A stretch of 32,552 bases of DNA from Candidatus Staskawiczbacteria bacterium (GTDB taxonomy: Bacteria; Patescibacteriota; Minisyncoccia; Minisyncoccales; Staskawiczbacteraceae), in NCBI GenBank assembly GCA_016866675.1, contig VGLO01000003.1, positions 1 to 32,552 of the forward strand. Reading direction: 5' to 3'. Below, piece by piece: positions 8,719 through 17,120 of the stretch (positions are counted from its first letter, which is position 1; every line of letters begins with the position of its first letter). The translations under genes were made by a program, and so were the position numbers. A model generated the notes under the pieces. It saw nothing but the letters and a program-made list of their open reading frames with translations, ran no database searches and had not been told where the DNA came from.

Positions 8719-9214
8719 ATAATTTTAATAAATTTATAACAATAAAAGAAATAAACCCAGAAAAAATACCGGCCAAAACATCCAAGGGCCAATGCACGCC
8801 ACAAAATATTCTGGATAATGCTATAAAAAAGCTTACAGTACAAAAAAGCAGTCCAAGTGTTAGATTATAAGGTAAAATTGAAAACGATAAAGCAAAGAAA
8901 ACAGCTGTATGACTTGATGGAAATGAAGGGTATTGAGGTTTTTTGACTAGAGAATTAACCTCTAAAACTTCTTGAGGTCTTTTTCTTTTATATATCTGGT
9001 AAATGGATTGATTAATTATAAACCTAGCAAAAAGCATTGCCAAAAACGGAAAAATTAAAATTTTAATATCTCTATAAAAAAGAGCATATAAAATTATAAT
9101 CAAAATTAAGAAGTACCCTGCGTAAACGGCAAATATTTTTGCAAAAAAATCCAAAAGATTATATTTTTTTGCGTACCCGTTAATTAACTTAAATAAATGT
9201 AAATCTAATTTCAT
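8711..9214 (-). CDS. PAP2 superfamily membrane phosphatase
   Basis: [32 protein letters not shown]; several hydrophobic segments. Confidence 0.92.
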
Positions 9215-10455
9215 TTAGGCAAAGGAAACTTTTTACATAGATTTTTAACTTCCTGACTTATTCTTTTTACCAAATAAGGTTTTGATATGACCTCATTTAT
9301 CCAACCTGCAATTTTTTTCATTTCTTTTTCTTTCATCCCCCTTGTGGTAATGGCTGGAGTGCCCATTCTTATTCCAGATGGCTTAAACGGAGAAGCTGTA
9401 TCATACGGAATACTATTTCTATTGGTAGATATTCCAATACTTTCAAGAAGATTTTGAGCATCTAATCCCGTAATATTTTTATTCCGCAAATCAATCAATA
9501 TTAAATGATTATCAGTGCCACCACTTACAAGATTAAACCCTAATTTACTTAGCTCTTCTCCTAAGGCCTTTGCATTTTTCACAACCTGAGATGCATATTT
9601 GCCAAACGCGGGTGTACTAGCTTCTTTTAAGCAGACTGCGATTGCAGCTATTGAGTTTTCGTGAGGGCCACCCTGTAATCCGGGGAAAACAGCTTTATCA
9701 ATTTTTTTTGATAAATCAGGGTCTTTCTTTAATCCCTTCTTTGTCACCATAATTAGGCCTCCCCTTGGCCCTCTTAATGTTTTATGTGTAGTTGTGGTCA
9801 CAATATCAACATATGGCACAGGGCTTGGATAAACTCCTCCGGCCACTAATCCGGCAACGTGAGCAATATCAGCTACCAAATAAGCTCCCACAGAGTCTGC
9901 AATTTTTCCTAATCTTTTCCAATCAAGTATTCTTGAATAAGCAGAGAATCCCAGCCAAATTAGCTTTGGTTTGTGCTCTTTTGCCAATTTTTCAAATTCT
10001 TCATAGTTCATCAAGTGGGTTTTTTCATATACTCCATAAGATACAGCATTAAAAAATTTTCCCGAAAAACTTACTTTGGCTCCATGAGTCAAATGCCCAC
10101 CCATAGAAAGAGCCATTCCCATAATAGTATCTCCTGGGTCACAGGTGGCCATGTATACTGCGGCGTTTGCAGGAGATCCTGAATGTGGTTGCACATTAAC
10201 GTACTCAACCCCAAAGAGCTTTTTTGCCCTTTCAATGCAAAGATTCTCAACTTCATCAATGAATTGGTTTCCGCCGTAATATCTTTTGCCCGGATATCCT
10301 TCTGCGTATTTGTCGGTCAAAAGCGAGCTCAAGGGTTCTCGCACAGCAGAAGAACAGTGGTTCTCAGAAGGAATCATTTGCAGAGTTGTCTTTTGGCGGT
10401 TAGTTTCCAATTCAATCAATTTTGCTACTTTTTGATCATTATTTTTTAACTTCAT
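9211..10455 (-). CDS. glyA: Serine hydroxymethyltransferase
   Basis: [47 protein letters not shown]. Start chosen at MKLKNND; the listed ORF runs upstream into the GC-rich cassette. Confidence 0.95.
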
Positions 10456-10491: not shown

Positions 10492-10535
10492 AAAAAACAG
10501 CGGCCATTCAAGTTGTAAAACCCAAATAGCCGCCT
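10492..10535 (-). terminator. Intrinsic terminator of the GC-rich cassette
   Basis: - strand GGCGGCTATT...AATGGCCGCTG followed by TTTTTTT. Confidence 0.7.
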
Positions 10536-10538
10536 TCA

Positions 10539-10580
10539 TTGCTCGTCTCAACTCTCGCTTTGCGAGGTTTCGTCGAGCAA
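10539..10580. repeat. Nested hairpin in cassette 3' region
   Basis: TTGCTCG (10539-10545) pairs CGAGCAA (10574-10580); inner CTCGC-ttt-GCGAG (10554-10566). Confidence 0.65.
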
Positions 10581-10586
10581 CCCTTA

Positions 10587-10624
10587 TGCCTGCTACGCCA
10601 CGCTTGCGCGTTGCTTCGCAGGCA
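10587..10624. repeat. 38-nt hairpin repeat sharing TGCCTGC/GCAGGCA arms with the palindrome at 7008-7027
   Basis: On -: TGCCTGC GAA GC A ACGC [GCAA] GCGT G GC GTA GCAGGCA; symmetric internal loops, GNRA-type tetraloop. Confidence 0.75.
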
Positions 10625-11318
10625 GGACACGTACGGAACGAGAGCGGATATGACTGCCGGAACTGCCCACACCACAGCTGTGGACCTGGACCTTGCCGAA
10701 GTCAGGATACCAGAACATGCACGGCACGCGACCATCCACATCGCGCGAGGCAGGACAGAGTGTCAAGTTCTCGTGATCGAGGTGTTCGCCCGTAGTCAGG
10801 AAGAAAGCCAGTTCCAGAAGCTCGCGCTCCAAGAACGTCATTCCGCGATGGCCTTCCCCATCAAGCTGGTTGGTGGATTTGCCGGCATTTTCCTCATCGG
10901 CCTCCACCACGGCGCGAACACTGATGGCGTAACTGCCATTGGCCGGGTCGCGATCGTTACGCTTGGAGATTTTCTGATCCAGGTTGTCCCCGTACAAGGA
11001 ATATCCACCGCAGCGTTCCTTGATCACGTTCCACACCTTGTTGCGGATGAGACTCTTGGGCACGTAGATAGCCCACTGACCAGCTGGTGCCGCCTCAAAC
11101 TGGTCCACGACCTCTTGGAACTCCTTTTACATGCCGAGTGCCTGACCAACAGCTTTCCAGTTGAGAACAACTGGGAGGTTGGCCGGCTCTGGCCAAGGGT
11201 TCTCCTTGCGGAGAAACTTCTTGGTGGCTTCGAGCCACTCACTTCCATCTTCCCCAGAGAGCTTCTGGAGAAGATCCTCAACTGGTCCACGAACATCGCA
11301 GAGCAGTAACCGACTCAT
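10593..11318 (-). pseudogene. GC-rich hypothetical gene with one in-frame TAA (two ORFs, 11127-11318 and 10593-11108 region)
   Basis: MSRLLLCDVRGPVEDLLQKLSGEDGSEWLEATKKFLRKENPWPEP... then stop, then in-frame KEFQEVVDQFEAAPAGQWAIYVPKSLIRNK...LERELLELAFFLTTGEHLDHENLTLC. SD AAGGAG before the ATG. Pseudogene versus two cistrons is unresolved. Confidence 0.6.
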
Positions 11319-11330
11319 GTCAGTCTCCTT

Positions 11331-11381
11331 GTCCCACAAAATGGGACTAAAATGAACAGTACCGATAAAGCCCGATGCTTT
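11331..11381 (-). promoter_or_regulatory. Structured 5' leader with two hairpins upstream of the cassette gene
   Basis: GTCCCA-ttttg-TGGGAC (11331-11347) and AAAGC-atcgg-GCTTT (11367-11381); SD AAGGAG follows the first directly. Confidence 0.6.
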
Positions 11382-11394
11382 ACCTTACGATTTA

Positions 11395-11423
11395 ATTATA
11401 CATCTTTATCTTATTATTGTCAA
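11395..11423 (-). promoter_or_regulatory. Perfect consensus sigma70 promoter
   Basis: - strand TTGACA (11418-11423), 17-nt spacer, TATAAT (11395-11400); -35 lies in the tsaC 3' end. Confidence 0.85.
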
Positions 11424-11969
11424 GTATCCTTTTGTGAGATCTATAATTGTTGAGGGTTGTGACTTTTTTAAATTCCCCCCATCAATAATAAGTATATCTT
11501 CTTTTCCAAAAACTTTTTCTATTTCTCTTGAGCCAATCATACTTTCACTTCCTGAAATATTTACGGATGTCTGCACTAAAGGCTTATTTATTTTTTTTAG
11601 TAAATTATTTAAAAATTTGTATTTAGGAATTCTTATAGCAATAGTGTTTTTATTAATACCATAAATCTTTACCTCTGCTTTTCTTTGTAAAATAAACGTA
11701 TATTTCCCTGGCCAATGCCCTTTTAGTGTTTTCTCCTGGTCTTTGCTTATTTCTGCAAACTCTTTTGCCATTTTTAAATCTTTAACAAAAACCGGTAAGG
11801 GTTTTGATTTTGGTCTTTTTTTTATTTTATAAATTTTTTCAACGGCTTTTTTATTTGAGGCATCAGCCAAAAATCCATAGACGGTATCTGTTGGACAAAT
11901 AATAACGCCTCCACTTTTTATTTCTAAAATAGCCTCATTAAGCGCTAGTTTTTCCTTTATTACTTTCAT
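11406..11969 (-). CDS. tsaC: L-threonylcarbamoyladenylate synthase (Sua5/YciO/YrdC family)
   Basis: GGVIICPTDTVYGFLADA, KIKKRPKSKPLPVFV, GHWPGKYTFIL, QTSVNISG. Confidence 0.92.
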   Translation of the reverse strand: MKVIKEKLALNEAILEIKSGGVIICPTDTVYGFLADASNKKAVEKIYKIKKRPKSKPLPVFVKDLKMAKEFAEISKDQEKTLKGHWPGKYTFILQRKAEVKIYGINKNTIAIRIPKYKFLNNLLKKINKPLVQTSVNISGSESMIGSREIEKVFGKEDILIIDGGNLKKSQPSTIIDLTKGYLTIIR

Positions 11970-16790: not shown

Positions 16791-16820
16791 AGTGGGCAAT
16801 CGCAATTGCGATTGCCCACT
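16791..16820 (-). terminator. 30-bp perfect palindrome with T tract, likely csrA terminator
   Basis: AGTGGGCAATCGCAATTGCGATTGCCCACT equals its own reverse complement; on - it is followed by TTTTTCATTT. Confidence 0.75.
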
Positions 16821-16842
16821 AGTTGTTTGCTGATGGCGAATA

Positions 16843-17052
16843 TTACTCGCCAGGCTTTGGCAACGTGGAGGGTGCGGGCTCTGCACCCGGCTTGCCATAG
16901 ATAGCCTCGTACACCTCGTTGCGGTGCACTGGAACCTCCTTTGGCGCCACAATGCCAAGGCGCACCTTGTCGCCTCGGATATCCACCACGGTGACCGTGA
17001 TGTCATTGTTGATGACGATCCTCTCGTTCTTCTTGCGAGACAATACCAGCAT
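16843..17052 (-). CDS. csrA: Carbon storage regulator CsrA
   Basis: MLVLSRKKNERIVINNDITVTVVDIRGDKVRLGIVAPKEVPVHRNEVYEAI; SD GGAGG 8 nt upstream; start trimmed from the listed ORF. Confidence 0.95.
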   Translation of the reverse strand: MLVLSRKKNERIVINNDITVTVVDIRGDKVRLGIVAPKEVPVHRNEVYEAIYGKPGAEPAPSTLPKPGE

Positions 17053-17120
17053 TGTCGAATCCTCCGAAAGGGTGTGATGTGCCAAGCCCTCAAGGTGGCT
17101 TGACGAAGTGTTCTACTTAT

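What the first reader, a model, noticed from the sequence alone, without database searches (positions are those of the whole stretch)
10492..11423. Self-contained GC-rich cassette in an AT-rich genome
A sharply GC-rich unit between tsaC and glyA has a perfect TTGACA-N17-TATAAT promoter embedded in the tsaC end, a structured leader, strong SD AAGGAG, one gene and its own terminator. Housekeeping neighbours lack these. It suggests a recently acquired or specially maintained expression cassette.
Basis: partly seen in the sequence, partly recalled or inferred. Interest (0 to 1): 0.7.

Follow-up and report, generated by a model that had tools for sequence, protein, structure and literature searches.

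The report
Orphan DGR target gene between tsaC–glyA
The GC-rich cassette is a homologue of the genes that patescibacterial diversity-generating retroelements hypermutate; here it sits without its template and reverse transcriptase and carries a premature stop, at a chromosomal site where sister species hold complete or split hypermutation systems.

Summary
In detail: window 10492-11423 is 53.5% GC in a 33.4% GC contig, with the contig's only perfect TTGACA-N17-TATAAT promoter, a structured leader, a good SD, one coding frame and a strong 3' hairpin/terminator block. One correction: the frame (11318 to 10593, minus strand) is broken by an in-frame TAA at 11129-11127. The gene is a homologue of the variable (target) proteins of patescibacterial diversity-generating retroelements (DGRs). 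In relatives the same family lies 5' of a template repeat and a reverse transcriptase; in 17 pairs, 352 of 367 TR/VR mismatches fall on template adenines. GC-richness and near-consensus promoters are family traits, so they do not show recent foreign origin. Five congeners have an empty tsaC-glyA junction. Three carry a target gene after tsaC and an RT before glyA, one of them fully contiguous. The window has only the target gene. The genome's single detected RT, on another contig, belongs to a clade tied to a different template type. Best reading: an orphaned DGR target cassette at a recurrent docking site, probably no longer diversified. Known kind; moderate interest.

The parts
11395..11423 (-). 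perfect sigma-70-type promoter TTGACA-N17-TATAAT; the -35 overlaps the last codons of tsaC
   Evidence: near-consensus promoter (11-12 of 12 matches) upstream of 30 of 54 family members against 0.9% of shuffles
11319..11394 (-). structured 5' leader with hairpin 11347-11331 (GTCCCATTTTGTGGGAC)
   Evidence: z -2.66
11325..11330 (-). Shine-Dalgarno AAGGAG, six bases before ATG 11318
11127..11318 (-). 5' part of the variable-protein gene: 63 codons, ended by the in-frame stop TAA 11129-11127
   Evidence: homologues have Gln, Ala or Lys at the stop position
10593..11126 (-). 3' part of the same frame: 177 codons plus TAG; a GTG at 11108 after AAGGAG (11126-11121) could restart translation
   Evidence: homologous along its length to DGR variable proteins
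10632..10748 (-). variable region (VR) equivalent, [39 protein letters not shown]
   Evidence: aligned with TR/VR pairs of relatives
10587..10624 (-). inverted repeat (TGCCTGC...GCAGGCA) directly 3' of the VR, candidate DGR hairpin/cruciform
10539..10580 (-). second hairpin (TTGCTCG...CGAGCAA); similar element after a DGR target gene in L122
10499..10534 (-). intrinsic terminator, 16-pair stem then T run
   Evidence: z -6.18
11406..11969 (-). flank: tsaC
   Evidence: orthologues
9211..10455 (-). flank: glyA
   Evidence: orthologues

Best explanation
The cassette is a gene for a DGR variable (target) protein with its own promoter, leader and 3' hairpin/terminator, inserted at the tsaC-glyA junction. 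Shown: the gene is homologous along its length to proteins whose C-terminal variable region differs from a linked, adenine-rich template almost only at template adenines, next to a DGR reverse transcriptase, in relatives. Shown: the same junction holds such target genes and RTs in three congeners and is empty in five. Inferred: in this genome the template and RT that served the gene have been lost, or the gene arrived as a target-only cassette. It is now an orphan: the one RT detected belongs to a clade linked to another template type, and the reading frame carries a nonsense codon. While it was a live target, cDNA copied from the TR with random bases at adenines would have replaced the VR and changed the surface of a binding domain at the C-terminus. 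Confidence is about 0.95 for family membership and about 0.6 for 'orphaned and decaying'.
For: Homology: relatives to E 6e-31; conserved residues shared with 52 family members. Family is a DGR target: a designed TR query found TRs between target gene and RT in relatives; 17 linked TR/VR pairs, 2090 aligned bases, 352 mismatches at TR adenines against 15 elsewhere (pairs shown). RT within the locus in 18 of 58. Locus: empty junction in G002, G005, G007, G011, G012; G008 has tsaC-target-TR-RT-glyA; G009 and G001 have the two halves on contig ends. G008's VR/TR differ at 14 A and 2 other positions. Orphan state: no TR in own genome by three searches, while the query found TRs in relatives; single RVT_1 hit, on C38; that RT sits in a 100/100 clade of 14 RTs, six with a different TR type and none with a window-type TR. 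In-frame TAA, with no internal stop in the other hits of the family search.
Against: The own assembly is in 138 contigs and contig C38 ends at the RT start, so a TR, or a second RT, may be unassembled. The VR itself shows only weak codon evidence of hypermutation (NNY 74% against 56%, p 0.044). The frame is otherwise intact after the stop, so decay would be recent, or the stop a sequencing error. The window protein is a long branch in the tree, so it is not a close orthologue of the G008/G001 target at this site.
Confidence: 0.75

Rival explanations
1. A live remote target: an RT and TR elsewhere in the genome, unassembled or unrecognised, still diversify this gene in trans, and the TAA is a sequencing error, a polymorphism or is bypassed by restart at GTG 11108.
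For: Remote targets occur: G011 has target genes on C24 and C6 and a TR plus RT on C25, with 22 of 23 mismatches at A for the C24 copy. About two thirds of family loci have no RT in the fetched flanks. C38 ends at the RT start. Intact frame after the stop, promoter, SD and 3' hairpins.
Against: No TR found in three searches. The detected RT belongs to another template type. In-frame stop.
Confidence: 0.25
2. A recently acquired foreign GC-rich gene, with GC content reflecting the donor.
For: Strong GC contrast; empty junction in five congeners.
Against: Target genes are GC-rich relative to their own loci in 54 of 58 cases across Patescibacteria, while linked RTs are not (0.524 against 0.353). 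Family members occur at the same junction in congeners.
Confidence: 0.1
3. Mis-assembly or contamination placed the cassette between tsaC and glyA.
For: The contig is from a fragmented MAG; only reads could exclude it fully.
Against: Family members occupy the same junction in G008 (contiguous) and, as split halves, in G001 and G009; a near-consensus promoter lies at the end of tsaC in G008 as in the window.
Confidence: 0.03

Closest known systems
Patescibacteria-restricted DGRs (DGR clade 2 of Roux et al. 2021, PMC8144416) and their target proteins
   Same: Phylum, C-terminal VR, adenine-specific TR/VR differences in relatives, and targets without recognised domains (no Pfam, PHROGs or relevant NCBIfam match).
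   Different: The window copy has no TR or RT in cis and a premature stop. I did not place the RTs on the published clade tree.
Remote variable proteins and VP homologues of cyanobacterial DGRs (PMC7517822)
   Same: Target-family genes separated from the DGR cassette, with 3'-terminal VR.
   Different: There remote targets are tied to a DGR in the same genome by VR similarity; here no matching TR was found. No transposase was looked for in detail.
Bordetella phage BPP-1 DGR target mtd with its IMH and hairpin/cruciform (PMC3240598)
   Same: Inverted repeats directly 3' of the VR.
   Different: The loops here do not fit the phage GRNA tetraloop; no sequence homology to Mtd was found.

Membership tests
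DGR variable (target) protein family of Patescibacteria | sequence homology to proteins encoded next to a TR and DGR RT | tested here: met
DGR variable (target) protein family of Patescibacteria | C-terminal region aligning with VRs whose mismatches to TR are at adenines (in relatives) | tested here: met
   352 of 367 mismatches at TR adenines in 17 pairs; window aligned
DGR variable (target) protein family of Patescibacteria | inverted repeat/hairpin directly 3' of the VR | tested here: met
   the phage-type GRNA loop is absent
DGR variable (target) protein family of Patescibacteria | intact reading frame | tested here: not met
   TAA 11129-11127; a sequencing error cannot be excluded. Hence filed as an orphan homologue, not as a working target
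DGR variable (target) protein family of Patescibacteria | C-type lectin fold of the VR domain | tested here: inconclusive
   confident model (pLDDT 88.5), but no PDB match better than E 1; C-type lectins, Mtd and TaqVP appear only among insignificant hits
complete DGR at this locus | TR and RT in cis | tested here: not met
   140 bases between the gene end and glyA hold only hairpins and a terminator; RT only on C38
complete DGR in this genome | cognate TR for this VR | tested here: inconclusive
   none found, but the assembly has 138 contigs
complete DGR in this genome | DGR-type RT | tested here: met
   C38 RT, nested in RTs with linked TRs, of the other template type

The most novel reading that the evidence does not exclude
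The site downstream of tsaC is a preferred docking site for DGR target cassettes, which move or are exchanged as promoter-target-terminator units independently of the RT. Five of about 22 target genes found in the order follow tsaC (window, G008, G001, G009, and G088 of another family), and they belong to more than one target and RT lineage.
Probability: 0.25. Interest if true: 0.6.

Novelty: new member of a known kind. Interest (0 to 1): 0.42.

Why it matters
Target genes of patescibacterial DGRs have no known domain and are often found away from an RT. This case gives a comparative series at one locus: empty site, complete system, split system and target-only remnant. It also shows that GC-rich islands with consensus promoters in AT-rich Patescibacteria can mark DGR targets, including orphans that RT-anchored surveys miss; Roux et al. 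(PMC8144416) state that their approach would not detect remote targets.

Tried and rejected
The first genome-contig scan with the window's own fragment found nothing, and a broad alignment was too diverged to scan with. Pfam, PHROGs, NCBIfam and PDB sequence searches gave no relevant family. Foldseek gave no significant match. Direct comparison of the window VR with relatives' TRs and with C38 gave only chance-level matches. CsrA control of the leader (ACAAGGA at the SD) was considered: the motif occurs in 2 of 56 family leaders (3.6%) against 0.4% of controls, and csrA is widespread anyway, so it is not supported. The insert between tsaC and glyA in G004 is not a recognisable target gene.

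Full report
Observation. The cassette is real and well delimited. Window 10492-11423 has 53.5% GC against 33.4% elsewhere, and no other stretch of that length exceeds 41%. It has the only exact TTGACA-N16..18-TATAAT in the contig (0.06 expected), a moderately structured leader (z -2.66) and a strongly structured 3' block (z -6.25) ending in a 16-pair terminator. The contig is the whole window (C3 of a 916 kb, 138-contig genome).

Identity. The cassette DNA occurs once in its genome. As protein it has relatives in 11 of 58 related genomes (own genome counted), mostly GC-rich in AT-rich surroundings. Their C-termini share a frame (TLCxxSRxxxGxVP...LRARSxVS) with highly variable residues between. 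That pattern suggested DGR variable regions, so I searched for reverse transcriptases and for template repeats, using a query with Asn at the variable positions. Both were found beside target genes in relatives. In cognate pairs the mismatches fall on TR adenines: for example 24 of 24, 20 of 20 and 18 of 18 in three pairs.

Breadth. A scan of one genome per species gave 60 loci, nearly all labelled Patescibacteria or unnamed bacteria; one record is titled Deltaproteobacteria and may be a binning issue. In the 17 loci with a TR shortly after the target gene, 352 of 367 mismatches are at the 577 TR adenines among 2090 aligned bases. Eighteen of 58 loci hold an RT in the fetched flank; contig ends make this a lower bound. 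Target genes are GC-richer than the rest of their locus in 54 of 58 (Wilcoxon p 1.6e-10), while their linked RTs are AT-rich (0.353 against 0.524, 18 loci). Near-consensus promoters (11 or 12 of 12) occur upstream of 30 of 54 targets against 0.9% of shuffles. GC-richness and the strong promoter are therefore family traits, and 3' hairpins are common in the members inspected. Why the constant part of the gene is GC-rich remains unexplained.

The site. In this genus leuS, a nucleotidyltransferase gene, tsaC, glyA and a PAP2 phosphatase gene are in conserved order. tsaC abuts glyA in G002, G005, G007, G011 and G012. In G008 the interval holds target gene, TR and RT, with 14 A and 2 other TR/VR mismatches. 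In G009 and G001 a target gene follows tsaC at one contig end, and an RT (with a TR in G009) precedes glyA at another; the join is inferred, not seen. G001's RT is frame-broken. G008 and G001 are orthologous in target (73% identity) and RT (100/100); G009's RT lies elsewhere in the tree. The window target falls in a five-member starred group (98); the G013, G012, G008 and G001 copies that share its ALGM-type linker are its likely members, but the window is a long branch and its exact place is unsure. A target gene also follows tsaC in G088 of another family. The site has thus hosted at least two different DGR lineages.

State of the window copy. Only 140 bases separate the gene from glyA, all hairpins and terminator. 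No TR was found in the genome; the same query worked in relatives. One RT was found, on C38. It lies in a 100/100 clade of 14 RTs, six of which have a different TR (encoding WAVNANW...) and none the window type. That other TR was not found in the own genome either, as expected if it lies beyond the C38 contig end. The stop replaces a codon that is Gln, Ala or Lys in homologues. The VR codons are compatible with adenine-derived AAY codons, but this test alone is weak (p 0.044).

Structure. Read through the stop as Gln, with 53 sequences in the alignment, the model is confident (pLDDT 88.5, pTM 0.80). No PDB match is significant; C-type lectins, Mtd variants and TaqVP recur among the weak hits. 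I do not count this as evidence of fold.

Known context. DGRs in Patescibacteria, their own RT clade and targets without recognised domains are published (PMC8144416), as are remote targets (PMC7517822) and the 3' hairpin requirement in a phage DGR (PMC3240598). This is therefore a new member of a known kind.

Noticed in passing
window 16791-17117, minus strand: A second GC-rich self-contained unit: csrA (ORF 16843-17085) between metG and tatD, with a perfect 13-pair palindromic terminator. CsrA is found in 24 of 58 relatives, mostly in the same family.
   Followed up: partly
L017 (G000:C38) end, L102, L093: A run of 9-11 G just upstream of the RT start is conserved in three genomes, and contig C38 breaks there; possibly a slippage-prone tract affecting RT expression.
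   Followed up: no
L096:1596-3264: In G004 the tsaC-glyA interval holds about 1.6 kb of unrelated DNA with apparent long inverted repeats and a 235-aa ORF; the repeats were seen by eye only.
   Followed up: no
L108 and L122, leaders of the target genes: Two target genes from different genomes share a leader hairpin (CATAGCCATAAG...TTATGGCTATG), hinting at conserved leader elements.
   Followed up: no
L090:133-1088: The RT next to glyA in G001 is split by a frame break, another sign of decay at this site.
   Followed up: no
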